Source: Bacteroidota bacterium
Lineage (GTDB): Bacteria; Bacteroidota; Bacteroidia; Bacteroidales; B18-G4
Assembly: GCA_003648575.1 (NCBI GenBank)
Contig: QMPN01000127.1
Span: 1 to 8,467, forward strand
DNA: 8,467 bases
Direction of reading: 5' to 3'
Of this stretch, positions 594 through 8,467 are shown piece after piece. The translations under genes were made by a program, and so were the position numbers. The notes below the pieces were generated by a model. That model searched no databases. It had not been told where the DNA came from and saw only the letters and a list, made by a program, of their open reading frames with translations. Each line of letters begins with the position of its first letter. Position 1 is the stretch's first letter.

Positions 594-602
594 GTGTTTT
601 TA

Positions 603-671
603 AGGTACAGGGGCCCCGATACCGGATATCGGTATCTTGATTTTCCTGGTATCTTGTGCCTGGTATCCAGG
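603..671. repeat. GGTATC-rich palindromic repeat cluster
   Basis: Contains the 7-bp inverted repeat GATACCG (618-624) / CGGTATC (630-636) around GATAT, the palindrome GGGGCCCC just upstream, and two direct copies of CCTGGTATC (645-653 and 659-667). It lies between the stop of the wHTH/NTase gene and the dehydrogenase gene. Similar words recur at 1232-1255, 1766-1789 and 7787-7816. A transcript could fold into short hairpins here, but there is no T-run of the kind expected for an intrinsic terminator. Confidence 0.6.
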
Positions 672-675
672 ACCA

Positions 676-1224
676 TTATATATTTTCTCCATTTTCCGTC
701 CAGAGTAATAAGATCTCGTCTTTTGCATATCCGTCAATGATCGACTTAAATTCACCAGTATTGTAAATTAAGTAGCGAATTTTCCTCTTAATCAGCTTTT
801 TTCCCCTATCGGTCAACCTGGCAAGGTATTCCCGATTGATGTCGTTACCAACAAGCAAAAGGTCGATTACCTCGCTGTCGACACCCCTTGCAAAGCTGCC
901 TACCAGGTAAACTTTTTGCACATTCCCCAGTTTCGAGATCACATTATCTATGATCTGGTCGAAGCCGATGTATTTCAGCAGAATATTGTGGATGTCCCTG
1001 AAAAGGGGATGGCCGGTATTGGCCTGGTAGAGCTTCTTGTTGCCCGACATATGCGATTGCAGCAACCCGGCCTTCTCAAACTTGTTCAGCTCAAGACGGA
1101 TACCATTGGTGCTTTCCTGAAACTCCCCCTCCAGATTCCTGAGATATGAACAGGCATTGCTGTTCAAAAAGAACTTAAGCAACAGCTTAATACGGGTTTT
1201 GCTGGTTATGAGAGTATCTAGCAT
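676..1224 (-). CDS. Winged-helix DNA-binding protein with nucleotidyltransferase-fold domain, probable polysaccharide-locus regulator
   Basis: A 182-residue protein if it starts at the ATG at 1224. The frame stays open upstream to 1371, but those 49 codons run through repeat DNA and have no family features. Residues about 7-70 look like a winged helix-turn-helix: helical TSKTRIKLLLKFFL, then NGIRLELNKFEKAGLL, the usual recognition-helix pattern. Residues about 104-160 resemble an MNT-type nucleotidyltransferase core, KVYLVGSFARGVDSEVIDLLLVG. The usual D-x-D metal pair reads V119-I-D121, so one acidic residue is missing and catalysis is doubtful. From memory, Bacteroidota commonly place such wHTH/NTase proteins next to nucleotide-sugar dehydrogenase genes in capsule loci, as here, so a regulatory role is inferred. 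No strong ribosome-binding site is visible, which is usual in this phylum. Confidence 0.75.
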   Translation of the reverse strand: MLDTLITSKTRIKLLLKFFLNSNACSYLRNLEGEFQESTNGIRLELNKFEKAGLLQSHMSGNKKLYQANTGHPLFRDIHNILLKYIGFDQIIDNVISKLGNVQKVYLVGSFARGVDSEVIDLLLVGNDINREYLARLTDRGKKLIKRKIRYLIYNTGEFKSIIDGYAKDEILLLWTENGENI

Positions 1225-1437: not shown

Positions 1438-1469
1438 ACTGTTCCACTGCTTCACTGTTTCATTGTTAT
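1438..1469. repeat. 8-bp tandem array, left arm of the truncated four-helix-bundle unit
   Basis: Units on the plus strand are ACTGTTCC, ACTGCTTC, ACTGTTTC and ATTGTTAT. The orientation is opposite to the array at 1664-1727, so the two form an inverted pair around the broken four-helix-bundle gene. A similar end (ACTGTTTCATTGTTATT) precedes the intact copy at 4757-5134, showing that the arm is part of the shared unit. Confidence 0.75.
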
Positions 1470-1505
1470 TATTGTGACATTTTGTAATAATTCGTATTAA
1501 TAAGT

Positions 1506-1673
1506 ATGAGGGAGCGATACTTATCAGTTGAAGATCTGGATGCATACAAGGGTTCATTTGAACTATCAAACTACGTCTGGAAAATAATTATCCGTTGGGG
1601 GTATTTTGAAAAAGACACTGTTGGAAAACAATTTGCACGCGCCATAGATTCCATATCAGCAATGAAACAGTGA
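1506..1673 (+). pseudogene. Truncated four-helix-bundle (23S rRNA IVS-protein family) gene, 5' part only
   Basis: An ATG at 1506 opens a frame whose first 52 residues match the intact protein at 4757-5134 at 45 of 52 positions (MRERYLSVEDLDAY against MKERYLSVEGLDAY; YFEKDTVGKQFARAIDSISA against YFEKDTVGKQFVRAIDSISA). Homology stops after the serine-alanine at 1655-1660. The next bases are the 8-bp array, which gives MKQ and a stop at 1671-1673. The intact copy continues with NIAEGFGR and two further helices, so about 70 residues are lost and the product cannot form the full bundle. At the break, AGCAA (1658-1662) is shared by the gene and by repeat units of the form GGAGCAAT, suggesting a deletion at microhomology. 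The 36 bases before the ATG also align with those before the intact copy. Confidence 0.85.
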
Positions 1674-1727
1674 AACAGTGCAACAATGAAACAGTGAAAC
1701 AATGAAACAGTGGAGCAATGGGGCAAT
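1664..1727. repeat. 8-bp tandem array, right arm of the truncated four-helix-bundle unit
   Basis: Eight consecutive units on the plus strand: GAAACAGT, GAAACAGT, GCAACAAT, GAAACAGT, GAAACAAT, GAAACAGT, GGAGCAAT, GGGGCAAT. It starts at the exact point where the four-helix-bundle homology ends. In the other strand's reading frames it encodes a pseudo-repetitive FHCFIV-like peptide that has no support as a protein. Confidence 0.85.
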
Positions 1728-2830: not shown

Positions 2831-2902
2831 ATTGTTCCATTGTCTCATTGTTTCATTGCTTCACTGTTCCATTGTTTCACTGTTCCATTGTTTCACTGTT
2901 AT
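2831..2902. repeat. 8-bp tandem array, long arm of a unit without a gene
   Basis: Nine consecutive plus-strand units: ATTGTTCC, ATTGTCTC, ATTGTTTC, ATTGCTTC, ACTGTTCC, ATTGTTTC, ACTGTTCC, ATTGTTTC, ACTGTTAT. The array starts 7 bases upstream (on the minus strand) of the -7 box of the coiled-coil gene. An oppositely oriented short array follows at 2925-2956. Confidence 0.8.
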
Positions 2903-2924: not shown

Positions 2925-2956
2925 ACAACAATGGAGCAATGAAACAGGGTAATAGT
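2925..2956. repeat. 8-bp tandem array, short inverted arm of the gene-less unit
   Basis: Units on the plus strand are ACAACAAT, GGAGCAAT, GAAACAGG and GTAATAGT, inverted relative to 2831-2902 and separated from it by 22 bases (ATTGCTAATGTTTAAA and following). The outer units are degenerate. The arm ends 12 bases from the stop codon of the exosortase gene. Confidence 0.55.
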
Positions 2957-2968
2957 GGGTTTATTCAT

Positions 2969-3538
2969 TTAGGAAGCATTGCGACGAATCCTTTCAACCC
3001 ACCACACCCACAGGGCAAAAATCACAACATAAAAAATAAAGCGAAAGATATTATCATGGAAGAAGTCCCACTGATAGGGCCAGTTGTTCATAACCACACC
3101 CAATCCCACCATGCGGAATATGTTAGTGAAATGCATGACCAGTATTCCCAGTGGAATAAACCAGAGTTTCTTCTTCCAGGGTCCCGGAAAAATAAGCATC
3201 AGAAGGGTGAACTGTATCAACTGTTTGAGGCCCGAACAGCTGTTGTTCACATACATAATAGCCTTGTTCGGGAAATACATGTACATGGTCTCATCCACCC
3301 TCACAATATCGATCATCCCCGAGATGATCCAGACTGATTCACGATAGACCTCTTTTGCCATCATGGTCATCAGTCCATACATTTGCTCCCTGATGGGTGC
3401 ATAGTTAAACTGTGTTTGCCAGATCCTCCAGGTAATATGTATAGCCAGGGTGATGATAATGAACAAGGCCACCTCTTTCAGTGCATCCAGCTGGTGCTTC
3501 CTGATAAAATCCTTTATAGATGTATAAAGCTTTTTCAT
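2969..3538 (-). CDS. Exosortase/archaeosortase family membrane protein, short Bacteroidota type (XrtF/XrtX-like)
   Basis: Predicted integral membrane cysteine protease/transpeptidase of 189 residues. Exosortases process C-terminal sorting signals of secreted proteins. The sequence shows the conserved active-site cysteine in VNNSCSGLKQ (C101), the arginine in NIFRMVGL (R142) and a histidine in FFHDNIFRF (H161). These lie at the ends of hydrophobic segments at about 22-40, 106-118, 124-150 and 163-180, as in the family. I chose the ATG at 3538 because it follows the RNase H stop by one base (TAA-G-ATG), giving translational coupling. An upstream start at 3571 would overlap that gene by about 30 bases. 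The exact subfamily (XrtF, XrtX or other) cannot be set by eye. No associated protein or substrate with an obvious sorting tail is visible in the window. Confidence 0.85.
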   Translation of the reverse strand: MKKLYTSIKDFIRKHQLDALKEVALFIIITLAIHITWRIWQTQFNYAPIREQMYGLMTMMAKEVYRESVWIISGMIDIVRVDETMYMYFPNKAIMYVNNSCSGLKQLIQFTLLMLIFPGPWKKKLWFIPLGILVMHFTNIFRMVGLGVVMNNWPYQWDFFHDNIFRFIFYVVIFALWVWWVERIRRNAS

Positions 3539-3539
3539 C

Positions 3540-4166
3540 TTATTTCCGGCCAAAGTCAGCCGGGATCTCACCCCATGCTGCTGTTTCCCACTTGATGATC
3601 TTATTCGGATAATTATTTGACTCCAGCCATGTTATGGCCCGTTCAACAAGTTCAAAAACCTTTTCGTTATTGGGCTTCTTTTCCAGCTTGGTCCTGATAC
3701 GTTTGTCGCGCACCCATTTCATGGCAGTCCTTGAATCAGTATAGATTGGGAAAACCTGGTTGCGCTCAGCCATATATGCAAGCCCATGTACGATGGCCAG
3801 GAACTCACCTATGTTCACGGTGGCATTCGGGAATGGGCCCTGCCGGAAAAGCTGCGCACCAGAAAGGGTATCCACACCCCTGTATTCCATGATGCCGGGA
3901 TTACCGCTGCAGGCAGCATCCACGCTGATAGTGTCGCCTATTGGTTTTCCATATGGGATCTTTTCAGCTTCCGTGAGCTTGCCAAAATCTTTTCCAATAT
4001 AGTTTTTTGGATCATCATCAAGGGCTTTATGAGCCAGCTCCTTGTCGACAAATGATTTGTATTTGGCCCCATCAAAGTCCCTGATCTGGCGCTCACACTC
4101 TTTCCAGTTCTCATACACCCCGGGTTCTTTTCCAACCCATACCACATAATATTTTTGCTTCGCCAT
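3540..4166 (-). CDS. Ribonuclease H with N-terminal viroplasmin-type hybrid-binding domain
   Basis: A 208-residue cytoplasmic enzyme that cuts the RNA strand of RNA:DNA hybrids, for example at primers and R-loops. Residues 1-50 (MAKQKYYVVWVGKEPGVYENWKE...) form the caulimovirus-viroplasmin/HBD-type domain that binds hybrids. Residues about 79-208 form the RNase H fold. The acidic active-site residues are D83 in SVDAACSGNPG, E121 in NIGEFLAI, D144 in YTDSRTA and D204 in the terminal WGEIPADFGRK. The start at 4166 gives the usual MAK(Q/K)KYYVVW opening. The frame is open upstream to 4331, but that part overlaps the divergent gldH gene and is not conserved-looking. It is followed at one base by the exosortase gene, so the two are likely co-transcribed, although no functional link is evident. 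Confidence 0.95.
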   Translation of the reverse strand: MAKQKYYVVWVGKEPGVYENWKECERQIRDFDGAKYKSFVDKELAHKALDDDPKNYIGKDFGKLTEAEKIPYGKPIGDTISVDAACSGNPGIMEYRGVDTLSGAQLFRQGPFPNATVNIGEFLAIVHGLAYMAERNQVFPIYTDSRTAMKWVRDKRIRTKLEKKPNNEKVFELVERAITWLESNNYPNKIIKWETAAWGEIPADFGRK

Positions 4167-4232: not shown

Positions 4233-4664
4233 ATGAAAAACCTGTTTCTGAGAACCATCCTGATAATTGTCCTTTTGATGGGATGTAATAGCGATAATAT
4301 CATTCACTCGTACTATTCGTTTCCGGAACAAAACTGGAAACGCTTCGATAATCCCATTATTGAAATTGATATCAACAAACCCGGGATCTTTTATGATATG
4401 TGGATCGAGTTGGATTATGATGTTTCCAAAACACTTGATGAATTTCTGATCACCGTAATCATGTCAACGCCCTCCGGCGAGATCAGAAGCAGGAATCTTA
4501 CCCTCGACATGGCTACCGGTGACGGAAAAATCCGTATAATCCTACGTAAAGACTTTGCTTTCTCTGAAAAAGGACCCTGCACCTTCGAGATTGAAAACCG
4601 CTCTCAAAATATTGAAACGAAGGGTTTGAAGAGGATTGGGATTGTATTGGAAAAGTCAAAATAA
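4233..4664 (+). CDS. gldH: GldH-like gliding-motility family lipoprotein
   Basis: A 143-residue precursor with a lipoprotein signal: MKNLFLRTILIIVLLMGC, lipobox cysteine at residue 18. The mature part fits the GldH pattern as I remember it: an early SYYSFPEQNWKRFDNPIIEIDI, a beta-rich middle with ELDYDVSKTLDEFLITVIMSTPSGE, and a C-terminal TFEIENRSQNIETKGLKRIGIVLEKSK. GldH is an envelope lipoprotein needed for gliding in Flavobacterium and linked to the type IX secretion/gliding machinery. Homologues are widespread in non-gliding Bacteroidota, where the role is unclear. The start at 4233 is chosen because it begins the signal peptide. The frame also opens at 4155, but that would overlap RNase H. 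No other gld gene is nearby. An 8-bp repeat array begins 13 bases after the stop. Confidence 0.75.
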   Translation: MKNLFLRTILIIVLLMGCNSDNIIHSYYSFPEQNWKRFDNPIIEIDINKPGIFYDMWIELDYDVSKTLDEFLITVIMSTPSGEIRSRNLTLDMATGDGKIRIILRKDFAFSEKGPCTFEIENRSQNIETKGLKRIGIVLEKSK

Positions 4665-4677
4665 AACCTGACGTATC

Positions 4678-4725
4678 ACTGTTTCACTGCTTCATTGCTT
4701 CATTGTTCCACTGTTTCATTGTTCC
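4678..4725. repeat. 8-bp tandem array, 3'-side arm of the intact four-helix-bundle unit
   Basis: Six plus-strand units: ACTGTTTC, ACTGCTTC, ATTGCTTC, ATTGTTCC, ACTGTTTC, ATTGTTCC. It begins 13 bases after the gldH stop and ends 31 bases before the stop of the four-helix-bundle gene. It is inverted relative to the array at 5179-5234. Confidence 0.85.
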
Positions 4726-4756
4726 ACCGATTTTCGAATATATTAAACACTCATTC

Positions 4757-5134
4757 TTAGTATTTTAACTTAGTATTTGTGAACTGTATAAGCTGATATA
4801 TTTCTTTGGGTAAACGATCAAGCTTACTTTTAATGTATATGAATTCTTCTGTTTTAATGATTGACCTATTATGACATTTATTATTCCAATCCTTACATTC
4901 TAAAACAGAACCCAGGCTGTAGTAGTAAAATCTTATTTTATCTTTTTTTGAAAATCTACCAAAGCCCTCTGCAATATTTGCTGAAATGGAATCAATTGCC
5001 CTGACAAATTGTTTTCCAACAGTATCTTTTTCAAAATAACTCCAATGAATTATTATTTTCCAAACGTAGTTTGATAATTCAAATGAAAGTGCGTAGGCAT
5101 CCAGCCCCTCAACAGATAAGTATCGTTCCTTCAT
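4757..5134 (-). CDS. Four-helix-bundle protein, 23S rRNA intervening-sequence (IVS) protein family
   Basis: A 125-residue, mostly helical protein of normal family length (TIGR02436/PF05635 type). It has the family's central signature RAIDSISANIAEGFGRFSKKDKIRFYYYSLGSVLECKDW at about residues 45-83. The segments before and after it give the other helices (FELSNYVWKIIIHWSYFEKD; FIYIKSKLDRLPKEIYQLIQF). Members are known from ORFs inside 23S rRNA insertions and as scattered intergenic genes. Their biochemical role is not established, although nucleic-acid binding through a basic oligomer is proposed for the related Avd proteins. Here the gene lies between octamer arrays in inverted orientation, and a truncated relative sits at 1506-1673. 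It is about 106 bases downstream of ribF on the same strand. Codon and base use is more AT-rich than its neighbours by eye, consistent with acquired DNA. Confidence 0.9.
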   Translation of the reverse strand: MKERYLSVEGLDAYALSFELSNYVWKIIIHWSYFEKDTVGKQFVRAIDSISANIAEGFGRFSKKDKIRFYYYSLGSVLECKDWNNKCHNRSIIKTEEFIYIKSKLDRLPKEIYQLIQFTNTKLKY

Positions 5135-5178
5135 ACCTATTAATACTATTTATTGAAAAATGTCCCCAATAATTAACA

Positions 5179-5234
5179 ATAACAATGAAACAGTGGAACA
5201 ATGAAACAGTAGAACAGTGAAACAGTGAAACAAT
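5179..5234. repeat. 8-bp tandem array, 5'-side arm of the intact four-helix-bundle unit
   Basis: Seven plus-strand units: ATAACAAT, GAAACAGT, GGAACAAT, GAAACAGT, AGAACAGT, GAAACAGT, GAAACAAT. It ends 6 bases before the ribF stop codon (5241-5243) and is inverted relative to 4678-4725. Confidence 0.85.
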
Positions 5235-5240
5235 AGAATT

Positions 5241-6164
5241 CTACAATATCCCCTGAACCGTTTCCCTATCCAGAGTTAACTGGGCTTTCAGTGCATCCAG
5301 ATCCTTGAATTTTACCTCGTTACGGATCCTGTCGACGAAGAAAATAGTAATGGTCTCATCATAGATCTCAACATCGAAATCGAAGATATGTACTTCAATG
5401 GTCAGGTCGCTGTTGTTGATGGTAGGCCTGTATCCAATATTTCCCATGCCCAGGTACATTTTTCCATCCCGGAGGATGCGGCAAGCATACACGCCTATCG
5501 CTGTGATCAGCTTGTATTCATCCTGCAGGTTGATATTGGCCGTAGGAAAACCGATCTTCCGGCCAATCTTATTCCCGCTCACAACAATACCGGTGATCGA
5601 ATACTCATACCCCAGGAGATTGTTTGCAGTTTTGATGTCACCCTGATGCAGGGCATTCCTGATCTTGGTTGAGCTAACGGCAATACTATCGATATCCTGT
5701 GCTGGTATCTGTTCTACTTTGAATCCAAACTCATTGGCCAGACCTAGCAATTCTTCGAAAGAACCCTCCCTGTTCCTGCCAAAATGATGATCGTAACCAA
5801 CCACCAGCTCACATACGCCGATCTTTTCAACCAGGACATTTTTTACAAATACAGATGCATCTGTGGAAGCAAATTCTTTTGTAAAGGGTATGATTAACAA
5901 GTGGTCAATGCCGTTGTTTTCTATGAGCTCGTATTTCCGCTCCAGTGTATTGATAAACTTCAGGTTTTTGCTGTCGGGGTGAACCACCAGACGCGGATGC
6001 GGATGGAAAGTGATAACAAGGGTCTCCCCGTCACAGGCTTCCGCCATGGTTTTCATGGTCGAAAATATCTTGCTGTGGCCTACATGTACCCCATCGAAAG
6101 TCCCCACTGTCGCCACCGGGTTCTTTATCCTTTCAAAGCTATCCAAACCATGGTAGATCTTCAC
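5241..6164 (-). CDS. ribF: Bifunctional riboflavin kinase / FMN adenylyltransferase
   Basis: A cytoplasmic enzyme that converts riboflavin to FMN and FMN to FAD with ATP. Its 307 residues are the normal length. The N-terminal adenylyltransferase half has VATVGTFDGVHVGH (residues 17-30, the HIGH-like nucleotide site), TFHPHPRLV, VVGYDHHFGRNREG and VSSTKIRNAL. The C-terminal kinase half has GRKIGFPTANI (201-211), MGNIGYRPTI and the catalytic-site segment TIEVHIFDFD with E257. The start is a GTG at 6164, three bases after the asd stop (TAG GAC GTG), and it gives the typical opening KIYHGLDSF. No better ATG precedes the conserved core. The tight spacing implies translation from the asd message. 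Confidence 0.97.
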   Translation of the reverse strand: MKIYHGLDSFERIKNPVATVGTFDGVHVGHSKIFSTMKTMAEACDGETLVITFHPHPRLVVHPDSKNLKFINTLERKYELIENNGIDHLLIIPFTKEFASTDASVFVKNVLVEKIGVCELVVGYDHHFGRNREGSFEELLGLANEFGFKVEQIPAQDIDSIAVSSTKIRNALHQGDIKTANNLLGYEYSITGIVVSGNKIGRKIGFPTANINLQDEYKLITAIGVYACRILRDGKMYLGMGNIGYRPTINNSDLTIEVHIFDFDVEIYDETITIFFVDRIRNEVKFKDLDALKAQLTLDRETVQGIL

Positions 6165-7172: not shown

Positions 7173-7206
7173 CCCCGCCGGGGCGGACATTTTACCAAAA
7201 TTGGTA
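7173..7206. repeat. Two small dyads in the asd / lamin-tail divergent gap
   Basis: CCCCG-C-CGGGG at 7173-7183 and TACCAA-AA-TTGGTA at 7193-7206. They lie in the 81-base region that must hold the promoters of both divergent genes. They could be operator-like, but no exact TAnnTTTG box is visible on either strand, and their role is unknown. Confidence 0.3.
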
Positions 7207-7241
7207 TTAATCAATAGAAACAAGACAAAAATACGAATTCG

Positions 7242-8467
7242 ATGAATAAGTACACCTTTATAAAACGCTGCATTTATTTGATTGTTTTAATTCCCTCCCT
7301 GTGTGCTGCCCAGGTGGCTGATGATTTTTCAGATGGGAACTTCACTCATAGTCCTGTCTGGACGGGCGATACCCATCACTTTATGGTGAACAATTACTTT
7401 CAGCTTCAGCTGAATGATGATGAGTCCGGGGAAGCTTCCATGTTTACAGACTTGCCGCTTCTTGATGAAATGGAATGGCGTGTCTGGATACGTCTGGCTT
7501 TTAGTCCTTCAGGGAATAACCATGCCAGATTTTACCTCTCCGCCCTGCCAGATGATACCACCGATATGCCCGATGGACTCTTTATACAATTGGGTGAGGC
7601 CGGTTCCGATGATGCCATTCGACTGATGATACAGGATGCCGGCGACACCTCCACTCTGATCAGGGGAACAGCAGCAGCCATCGCATCATCATTCAAATGC
7701 AGGGTGAAGGTGCTACTAAAAAACGACAGTTGCCATCTTTTTGTTGATTACACCGGAGGTTTCGACTTCCAGCCGGAGGGAAGCTGTACCTGGTATCAGG
7801 AACCCGATACCAGGTACTTGGGTGTATTCTGTAAATATACCTCCAGCAACAGCAAAAAATTTTATTTTGATGATTTCTATGCCGGACCGGAGCTGTATGA
7901 TACTATACAGCCTGAAGTGAAGCGGTATGATGTCGTGATCAATGAGATTATGGCTGATCCCTCACCTCCGCAGCAATTGCCCGAACATGAGTACCTGGAA
8001 CTGTATAATACCACAACTGTGAACCTCAACCTTGATCAATGGGTGTTGATGATCGGGGGCAGTGAAAAGTTGCTTACAGGGGCAAAAATCGACCCTGAGG
8101 GCTATTTAATCCTTGGAAAGGATGATCACGCGGCTGAGTTTACAGCCTATGGCTCTTTTTACGGCCTCGAAAGCTTCTCCCTTACCAACGCAGGACAGGA
8201 GATACTGCTGATCGATCACAAAGGGGAAATGATCTCCGGTATATATTACCGAGATGAATGGTATGATGATGATGAGAAGGCAGACGGAGGGTGGTCATTG
8301 GAACAGATCAATCCTTACAATCCCTGTCTGGGGCATAACAACTGGACGGCTTCTATGAATAACAAAGGCGGAAGCCCGGGAACCAAAAATGCTGTGTTTG
8401 AAGACTATTACCTTGCCCCGGAAATCGTTCGTGCATGTGCTATAGATTCGGTGCGGATAAGGATTGA
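7242..8467 (+). CDS. Secreted lamin-tail domain protein, N-terminal 408 residues, cut by window edge
   Basis: Begins with a signal peptide MNKYTFIKRCIYLIVLIPSLCAAQ, probably cleaved after CAAQ or close by, so the product is exported. Residues about 27-225 look like a beta-sandwich (DDFSDGNF...WTGDTHHFMVNNYFQLQL...FYFDDFYAGP), perhaps of a concanavalin-like fold. Residues about 231-385 form a lamin-tail (LTD) domain: VINEIMADPSPP, EYLELYNTTTVNLNLDQWVL, LESFSLTNAGQEILLID and a closing GWSLEQINPYNPC...NWTAS...GGSPGTKNAV. Bacteroidota proteins of this type are usually long, cell-surface or secreted, and often end in a type IX secretion or gliding-associated C-terminal domain, which here would lie beyond the window. 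A perfect GGTATC-type inverted repeat is embedded at codons 182-192. The frame is open to the last base. Confidence 0.85.
   Translation, partial: MNKYTFIKRCIYLIVLIPSLCAAQVADDFSDGNFTHSPVWTGDTHHFMVNNYFQLQLNDDESGEASMFTDLPLLDEMEWRVWIRLAFSPSGNNHARFYLSALPDDTTDMPDGLFIQLGEAGSDDAIRLMIQDAGDTSTLIRGTAAAIASSFKCRVKVLLKNDSCHLFVDYTGGFDFQPEGSCTWYQEPDTRYLGVFCKYTSSNSKKFYFDDFYAGPELYDTIQPEVKRYDVVINEIMADPSPPQQLPEHEYLELYNTTTVNLNLDQWVLMIGGSEKLLTGAKIDPEGYLILGKDDHAAEFTAYGSFYGLESFSLTNAGQEILLIDHKGEMISGIYYRDEWYDDDEKADGGWSLEQINPYNPCLGHNNWTASMNNKGGSPGTKNAVFEDYYLAPEIVRACAIDSVRIRI
7787..7816. repeat. Perfect 11-bp inverted repeat of the GGTATC type inside a coding region
   Basis: TACCTGGTATC (7787-7797), an 8-base loop AGGAACCC, then GATACCAGGTA (7806-7816). 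It uses the same words as the intergenic repeats at 603-671 and 1766-1789. Translated, it gives TWYQEPDTRY within the N-terminal sandwich domain of the lamin-tail protein, with the frame preserved. Confidence 0.7.

What the first reader, a model, noticed from the sequence alone, without database searches (positions are those of the whole stretch)
4678..5234. IVS-like element between genes: a four-helix-bundle gene enclosed by inverted arrays of an 8-bp repeat
The gene is flanked by six octamers (ACTGTTTC type) on one side and seven (GAAACAGT type) on the other, in inverted orientation, so a transcript could fold into a long imperfect stem with the ORF in the loop. That is the architecture of 23S rRNA intervening sequences, whose ORFs encode this same family, yet no rRNA is present and the unit sits between gldH and ribF. 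A tandem octamer array used in place of ordinary terminal inverted repeats is unusual. Seen directly: arrays, orientation, gene. Known: family link to IVS. Inferred: that it is one element.
Basis: partly seen in the sequence, partly recalled or inferred. Interest (0 to 1): 0.75.

Follow-up and report, generated by a model that had tools for sequence, protein, structure and literature searches.

The report
Competence-linked four-helix-bundle repeat-array element
A small gene of unknown function, boxed in by mirrored arrays of an 8-letter DNA word, turns out to be one copy of a widespread bacterial element, and its gene carries a DNA motif that also stands before the DNA-uptake (natural transformation) genes of a close relative.

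Summary
In detail: six and seven octamers in inverted orientation enclose a PF05635 ("23S rRNA IVP", four-helix-bundle) gene between convergent gldH and ribF. The unit is an insertion: nine relatives have this junction with no room for it. The window also holds two degraded copies. The layout is the rule for this family: 88 of 126 IVP loci have inverted flanks scoring >=18, against 27 of 352 control genes. The arrays are period 7 or 8 in 109 of 126 loci, and the period follows the protein clade, though not at depth. A true 23S rRNA IVS in Azospirillum has the same arms. Between array and ORF lies a 26-bp motif. In the nearest genome it precedes dprA, recA, recJ, comEC, a ComEA-like gene, comM, ssb, radC, topA and 6 of 11 IVP genes. 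A second lineage has another motif shared by IVP, ssb and GIY-YIG genes. I conclude: a competence-type IVP array element. That IVP reads the words in single-stranded DNA and spreads by transformation is inferred. Against: most 7/8-bp arrays stand alone, and no recent within-genome copies were found.

The parts
4678..4729 (+). U3 array A: six 8-bp units (TTYCAYTG type)
4757..5134 (-). U3 IVP gene, 125 aa, PF05635/TIGR02436, predicted four-helix bundle (pLDDT 94)
5139..5164 (-). 26-bp motif GACATT-N12-GTATTAAT directly before the IVP start codon, between array and ORF; candidate competence-type promoter or activator site
5179..5238 (-). U3 array B: seven 8-bp units, inverted relative to array A; ends 2 bp short of ribF
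1438..1465 (+). U1 array (left), three units and a half
1476..1501 (+). U1 copy of the 26-bp motif, perfect match
1506..1673 (+). U1 truncated IVP ORF (55 aa), running into the right array; window 1501-1660 is 82.5% identical to the matching U3 DNA
1660..1723 (-). U1 array (right), eight units
2835..2898 (+). U2 unit without IVP ORF, left array, eight units
   Evidence: fold z -3.3
2929..2944 (-). U2 unit without IVP ORF, right array, two units
7186..7211 (+). third perfect copy of the 26-bp motif, before ORF 7242 (looks secreted); also present before the G001 counterpart (L347)
4233..4664 (+). gldH, left neighbour of the insertion
5241..6164 (-). ribF, right neighbour of the insertion

Best explanation
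The unit is one copy of a widespread element: an IVP (S23-family, four-helix-bundle) gene enclosed by inverted arrays of a tandem 7- or 8-bp word. In this lineage the gene carries a motif that it shares with natural-transformation genes. Most likely IVP is made when the cell is competent, and its oligomer (five chains in both solved relatives) binds the repeated word, probably in single-stranded DNA where the arms fold back into a hairpin. The element spreads between cells as taken-up DNA and settles in gene junctions; copies decay to truncated genes, ORF-less hairpins and solo arrays. Shown: layout, association, clade-linked period, insertion at gldH-ribF, motif shared with dprA, recA, comEC and others. 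Inferred: that the motif is a promoter or activator site, that IVP binds the words, the single-strand substrate, movement by transformation, and the decay series.
For: Inverted flanks: 88/126 IVP loci score >=18 against 27/352 control genes; >=25: 39/126 against 1/352. Period 7/8 (with 14/16) is best in 109/126 loci, 31/126 shuffled. Left and right words match within a locus beyond other loci, also inside the window's own clade (30 loci): 22.6 against 18.2, 0 of 10,000 permutations as high. Period label needs 10 changes on the IVP tree against 31.6 shuffled, 0/500 as low. Junction without the unit in nine relatives. Motif GACATT-N12-GTATTAAT: 29 sites in G001, all 26 bp although 20-30 bp were allowed, reversed-pattern control 0. 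With one mismatch and a final A, 34 sites, control 2. Of these 34, 9 precede comM, a ComEA-like gene, comEC, recA, recJ, dprA, ssb, radC and topA, and 6 precede IVP genes (6 of the 11 IVP matches). Second lineage: 13 sites of GTAAGGAATT-N-TCTTACTT in 5 of 8 genomes, control 0; 6 precede IVP, 2 ssb, 3 GIY-YIG.
Against: No copy-number bursts: the most similar within-genome IVP pair among the fetched loci is 75% identical (133 pairs). Most 7/8-bp arrays sampled do not flank an IVP: 2 of 23 octamer places, 2 of 16 arrays in 800 kb. 16 of 126 IVP loci show no inverted match (<14), among them Pseudanabaena L066 without arrays; L028/L029 carry direct arrays. 5 of 11 G001 IVPs lack the motif, and one of the six that have it (C212) is under the Pfam cut-off. 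The period signal vanishes when rows are thinned at 50% or 45% identity. The best structure matches are S23 proteins, then Avd at E 0.025; no nuclease or recombinase stands out. In the second lineage several sites look like orthologs between related genomes, so the 13 are not independent. Regulation rests on shared motifs, without expression data.
Confidence: 0.55

Rival explanations
1. RNA-level IVS-like element: the read-through operon transcript folds into the long stem and RNase III removes the ORF-bearing loop, so that insertion is harmless.
For: Very stable RNA fold (z -6.9 and -6.1). IVP in sense orientation between its neighbours: both co-directional in 83/101 loci against 163/298 controls, p 3e-7. 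A true 23S IVS has the same arms (L133), and RNase III excision is published for the Coxiella 23S IVS (PMC4990558, abstract and passages).
Against: Arm mismatches are strand-symmetric (164 G-U, 169 A-C). The candidate promoter motif lies between left arm and ORF, so a transcript from there lacks one arm. The window unit sits at a convergent junction, not inside an operon.
Confidence: 0.18
2. Host-useful module: IVP is a transformation accessory protein (for example one that protects or routes incoming ssDNA) and the arrays are its binding sites, not a selfish element.
For: Shares the motif with dprA, recA, ssb and comEC in G001, and a motif with ssb in a second lineage. No near-identical copies within a genome among the fetched loci.
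Against: 24 of 99 Bacteroidota genomes have no IVP match; copies sit at unrelated junctions; truncated and ORF-less copies lie in the window.
Confidence: 0.2
3. DNA transposon independent of competence, with IVP as an unrecognised transposase and the arrays as terminal inverted repeats.
For: Inverted, strand-symmetric ends; insertion at gldH-ribF; related proteins beside different genes in different phyla (L010 and L013, 78% identical).
Against: No catalytic-looking invariant set by eye and no transposase among the best structure matches; no near-identical copies within a genome. The window protein has no match in 50,697 phage records and one in 72,556 plasmid records; a cyanobacterial IVP matches 13 plasmid records.
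Confidence: 0.1
4. The arrays are replication-slippage satellites, unrelated to IVP.
For: Most arrays sampled lie away from IVP genes.
Against. Also 28 arrays in 30 IVP-bearing genomes against 2 in 24 IVP-less ones (confounded by G+C content 0.40 against 0.52).
Confidence: 0.05

Closest known systems
23S rRNA intervening sequences (IVS) with S23/IVP ORF
   Same: Same protein family, inverted-repeat-closed unit with the ORF in the loop; in Azospirillum lipoferum L133 even tandem 7-bp arms
   Different: Not in rRNA; carries a motif shared with transformation genes; RNase III excision not shown
REPIN / RAYT (REP-associated Y1 transposases)
   Same: Short hairpin repeats dispersed with a small protein gene; two Y1-type genes carry the same motif in G001
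   Different: IVP is not a Y1 transposase; the ends are tandem arrays, not single REPs (RAYT biology recalled)
Cyanobacterial STRR (recalled) and TAACTGA heptamer repeats (PMC4679880)
   Same: Intergenic 7-bp tandem arrays in Cyanobacteria, Bacteroidetes and Beggiatoaceae; horizontal transfer suspected, no mechanism evident
   Different: Described there as direct repeats; 'S23', 'intervening' and 'four helix' do not occur in that paper's main text
Avd, accessory protein of diversity-generating retroelements
   Same: Similar fold (4dwl, 8ub7; TM about 0.7, E 0.025 and higher)
   Different: 6-10% sequence identity; no reverse transcriptase seen in the window
Foldback (FB) elements of Drosophila (recalled)
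   Same: Long inverted ends built of short tandem repeats
   Different: Eukaryotic, unrelated proteins

Membership tests
23S rRNA IVS | PF05635 ORF | tested here: met
   E 3.5e-23
23S rRNA IVS | closed by inverted repeats | tested here: met
23S rRNA IVS | located in a 23S rRNA gene | tested here: not met
   no Rfam match in the window; lies between gldH and ribF
23S rRNA IVS | excised from the transcript by RNase III | not testable with these tools
   needs RNA data
S23 / IVP protein family | four-helix-bundle fold | tested here: met
   model pLDDT 94; 2gsc E 4.6e-6, 2rld E 3e-4
natural-transformation regulon | shares its control motif with dedicated transformation genes | tested here: met
   G001: dprA, comEC, ComEA-like, comM, ssb, recA. 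Shown in the relative; in the window itself the motif precedes two IVP copies and ORF 7242
natural-transformation regulon | induced in competence | not testable with these tools
   no expression data
mobile element | site without the insertion in relatives | tested here: met
   nine gldH-ribF junctions without the unit
mobile element | recent multiple copies | tested here: inconclusive
   no within-genome pair above 75% protein identity among fetched loci; window U1/U3 82.5% DNA identity over 160 bp
REPIN / RAYT | Y1 transposase partner | tested here: not met
   IVP is PF05635 with an S23 fold; whether a RAYT elsewhere acts on these arrays was not tested
diversity-generating retroelement | reverse transcriptase and template/variable repeat | tested here: inconclusive
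   no reverse transcriptase among the seven window ORFs searched in Pfam; other ORFs judged by eye only, and the window is 8.5 kb

The most novel reading that the evidence does not exclude
IVP arrays are a class of competence-coupled single-strand DNA elements, alongside Y1/REP transposases and small GIY-YIG nucleases that carry the same motif. IVP lineages read words of period 7 or 8. Their remnants are the long-unexplained heptamer/STRR/TAACTGA repeats, and 23S rRNA IVSs are the copies that landed in rRNA.
Probability: 0.4. Interest if true: 0.95.

Novelty: new variant of a known kind. Interest (0 to 1): 0.85.

Why it matters
PF05635 is common (75 of 99 Bacteroidota genomes, up to 16 matches each), and I know of no established function for it outside DGRs. 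A motif shared with the transformation machinery, and a clade-linked repeat period, give a testable function. They would also tie together three separately described puzzles: 23S rRNA intervening sequences, tandem heptamer repeats in cyanobacteria and Bacteroidota, and Avd-like proteins. The motif itself is a candidate transformation-regulon signature for uncultured Bacteroidota and points to new candidate genes, such as ORF 7242 of this window.

Tried and rejected
RNA-strand selection on the arms: no G-U over A-C excess. Host composition as the cause of the word: 13 of the 14 genomes or contigs with three or more IVP loci hold both period classes (L025 is a single contig; G007 is the exception). 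Period as a fixed property of deep clades: lost when thinned at 50% or 45% identity. Phage carriage: no match of the window protein in 50,697 phage records; the best structure matches among viral proteins are mainly Avd-like, none at E <= 0.001. Array density in IVP-less genomes: 2 against 28, but the G+C difference leaves it suggestive, and in the G+C<0.45 subset only 5 IVP-less genomes remained. A genome-wide test in the window's own organism: not possible, none held.

Literature: seven full-text searches named IVP, S23, intervening sequence, STRR, heptamer, Avd or tandem-repeat terms and three named transformation or GIY-YIG terms. No title or abstract opening in these (capped) listings links IVP genes to tandem arrays or to transformation; the library misses most subscription journals. 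In the FLSHclust paper (PMC10910872, one passage read) IVP is a label in a figure legend. In PMC10053308 (two passages read) PF05635 is related to Avd.

Full report
1. What is in the window. gldH (+) and ribF (-) converge and are 576 nt apart. The gap holds six 8-bp units (TTYCAYTG type), an IVP gene on the minus strand, and seven units in inverted orientation. The arms are 51 nt and 88% complementary; ACTGTTTC-like octamers number 32 in the window against 7.2 expected (0/200 shuffles). The gene is PF05635, E 3.5e-23, TIGR02436, with a four-helix-bundle model at pLDDT 94. Its nearest solved structures are 2gsc and 2rld, then Avd of the Bordetella phage DGR at E 0.025. The same word occurs in two degraded units: U1 (1438-1723) encloses an IVP ORF cut short by the array, and U2 (2835-2944) has no IVP ORF. 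Folded as RNA the three units give z -6.9 (U3), -6.1 (U1) and -3.3 (U2).

2. It is an insertion. The nearest genome found is G001 (RibF 72% identical). There gldH and ribF converge with no unit. Of 30 ribF loci examined (of 143 genomes with a match), nine have gldH convergent next to ribF, at most about 120 nt apart between aligned ends, which leaves no room for an IVP gene.

3. The layout is general. One scan of GTDB genomes for close IVP relatives gave 35 loci, in Bacteroidota, Ignavibacteria, candidate-phyla MAGs and Armatimonadota by record title. Most show, by eye, matching inverted words beside the gene, but the word differs by locus (more loci). IVP is multi-copy: 4 to 15 matches in each of 10 genomes chosen because they hold one, and present in 75 of 99 Bacteroidota genomes. 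The statistics use 126 non-redundant IVP loci (137 hits covering at least 70 profile positions; 3 dropped for short flanks, the rest as repeats) and, as controls, 352 other ORFs of 95-230 aa from the same held loci. Inverted flank similarity reached 18 in 88 of 126 against 27 of 352, and 25 in 39 against 1 (Mann-Whitney p 6e-37). Direct similarity reached 18 in 18 of 126. The best repeat lag is 7, 8, 14 or 16 in 109 of 126 loci and in 31 of 126 shuffled. Within-locus left-right matching exceeds matching between loci (22.1 against 12.2), also inside the window's own clade (22.6 against 18.2), with 0 of 10,000 permutations as high in either case. 16 of 126 loci fall below 14, among them Pseudanabaena L066 without any array; L028 and L029 carry direct arrays.

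4. Cyanobacteria and a true IVS. Of 13 plasmid records matched by a cyanobacterial IVP I opened 11, ten cyanobacterial and one Azospirillum. Nine of the ten cyanobacterial loci have inverted 7- or 8-bp words beside the IVP (for example GGGAACA, GTCAGGA, GGGTGTA; scores 19-41), and L066 has none (score 8). Three of these IVPs sit between cas genes (L129, L130, L134). In Azospirillum lipoferum 4B an IVP ORF (L133; no feature listed there in the incomplete plasmid table) lies inside a 23S rRNA gene (RF02541, 1136 bits) with inverted 7-bp arrays. This ties the window unit to the classical IVS by layout, although the window unit is not in rRNA.

5. The period goes with the protein. On a 126-row IVP tree the period label (61 period-7, 40 period-8, 25 unlabelled) needs 10 changes against 31.6 for shuffled labels, 0/500 as low. 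The window's clade (30 rows, SH-aLRT 96) has 26 period-8, 0 period-7 and 4 unlabelled, although its hosts, by record title, lie in several phyla. With rows thinned at 60% identity the signal holds (7 against 11.2, 0/500); at 50% and 45% it is gone. So the period is inherited over moderate divergence and has switched several times. Many forks of the tree are unresolved.

6. Arrays without IVP. This is the main evidence against a tight unit. An octamer pattern hit 30 times in 11 of 99 genomes (reversed-pattern control 7), at 23 places; 2 places flank an IVP, and others look by eye like solo arrays or ORF-less hairpins such as L139 and L158. In 800 kb taken at even steps from G075 and G039, intergenic arrays number 25 at lags 7, 8, 14 and 16 (one array can count at two lags) and 4 at the other thirteen lags; of 16 merged arrays 2 lie beside an IVP. 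In 54 other genomes, 28 arrays were found in 30 genomes with at least four IVP matches and 2 in the 24 without any (p 2e-4 per intergenic base; by genome 12/30 against 2/24, p 0.008). G+C content differs (0.40 against 0.52), so this is suggestive only. I read the solo arrays as remnants of such units, which is inference.

7. RNA or DNA. Both neighbours run in the IVP direction in 83 of 101 loci, against 163 of 298 controls (p 3e-7), so the units tolerate or need transcription in their own direction. But arm mismatches are 164 G-U and 169 A-C (88 loci): selection for pairing in the sense RNA would favour G-U. The motif of paragraph 8 also lies between the left arm and the ORF.

8. The competence link. 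Both IVP copies in the window have, between array and start codon, a perfect GACATT-N12-GTATTAAT; a third perfect copy precedes ORF 7242 (the chance figure printed there is for up to 3 mismatches, 1.3 expected, and 33 of 200 shuffles had three such). A pattern with free spacing of 6-16 found 29 sites in G001, every one exactly 26 bp, reversed-pattern control 0; ten other genomes had 0-3, with controls of 0-5. With one mismatch and a final A there are 34 sites in G001 (control 2). Read one by one (IVP positions): 6 precede IVP genes; 9 precede comM/yifB, a ComEA-like gene, comEC, recA, recJ, dprA, ssb, radC and topA; 2 GIY-YIG; 2 Y1/REP transposases; 2 ORF6N; 1 each of PDDEXK_3, Gp49-like and LanC-like; one more looks like a broken GIY-YIG gene; 9 are unassigned or unread. 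yifB, ssb, radC and the ComEC N-terminal domain pass curated cut-offs. recA, recJ, dprA and topA are cut by the stretch ends and fall short of theirs with E from 3e-36 to 8e-92; the ComEA-like and REP-transposase matches (E 5e-12, 2e-17) are under cut-off. Among the unassigned is the counterpart of ORF 7242 (L347). With 2,500-3,000 genes assumed, 6 of 11 IVPs has a chance near 1e-9. ComEC, ComEA, DprA and ComM are dedicated transformation proteins (established knowledge), so I take the motif for a transformation-regulon signal.

9. A second lineage. IVPs of G075 and G064 share another leader, GTAAGGAATT-N-TCTTACTT. It occurs 13 times in 5 of 8 genomes searched, control 0. Downstream (Pfam; IVP positions) are 6 IVPs, 2 ssb, 3 GIY-YIG (one broken, by eye), 1 weak metallo-beta-lactamase match (E 7e-4, under its cut-off; ComEC-like by my reading) and 1 protein with no Pfam match. 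Some of these look like orthologs in related genomes, so they are not 13 independent cases. A different motif with the same gene company is the best support for the link.

10. How it most likely works. IVP is made in competence and binds its own word array, probably in single-stranded DNA where the two arms fold back. The unit travels as taken-up DNA and settles in gene junctions. In line with this are related proteins beside different genes in different phyla (78% identity between L010 and L013), no phage match of the window protein, and no near-identical copies within a genome (best pair 75% of 133). Binding, substrate and movement are not shown. The absence of bursts equally fits a host-useful transformation protein.

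11. Known background. The Coxiella IVS is described as a selfish element excised by RNase III, with remnants of transposition among the hypotheses (PMC4990558, abstract and passages). Heptamer TAACTGA repeats in Beggiatoaceae, Cyanobacteria and Bacteroidetes were described with horizontal transfer suspected and "no mechanism is evident" (PMC4679880, abstract and passages). RAYT, foldback and STRR biology is recalled. None of my ten paper searches listed a title or abstract opening joining IVP genes to arrays or to transformation.

Noticed in passing
window 7186-7211 and ORF 7242-8465: Perfect copy of the competence-type motif before a protein that looks secreted; also present before the G001 counterpart (L347). 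Candidate transformation gene.
   Followed up: partly
L133 626-1057: IVP ORF with inverted 7-bp arrays inside a 23S rRNA gene of Azospirillum lipoferum 4B plasmid AZO_p2; no feature listed there in the (incomplete) plasmid table.
   Followed up: yes
L129, L130, L134: IVP units between cyanobacterial cas genes (cas6/cas4; cas10/cmr3), a possible reason why IVP appears as a CRISPR-linked label in PMC10910872.
   Followed up: no
G001 motif sites L313, L322, L326, L335, L329, L332, L342: GIY-YIG, Y1/REP transposase, ORF6N and PDDEXK_3 genes carry the same motif as dprA and comEC.
   Followed up: partly
L206 856 to the IVP ORF at 1689 (G001 C77): Motif, then radC, then an IVP unit on the same strand: this IVP has no motif of its own but may be co-transcribed with radC.
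   Followed up: no
window 600-680, 1240-1290, 1770-1800, 7790-7830: GGTACC/GGTATC-type word runs like the flanks of another IVP lineage (L059), perhaps remnants of other units.
   Followed up: no
L007, L018, L027, L017: IVP units of different period classes seem to sit at the same sdhA-sdhB junction, read by eye from the flanks.
   Followed up: no
L028, L029, L031: IVP subgroup with longer direct-type arrays (AATGACAACAAATGACAGCG type in L028/L029) instead of inverted octamers.
   Followed up: no
window 2969-3571: Exosortase-family gene (PF09721; best NCBIfam match XrtX, under its cut-off).
   Followed up: no
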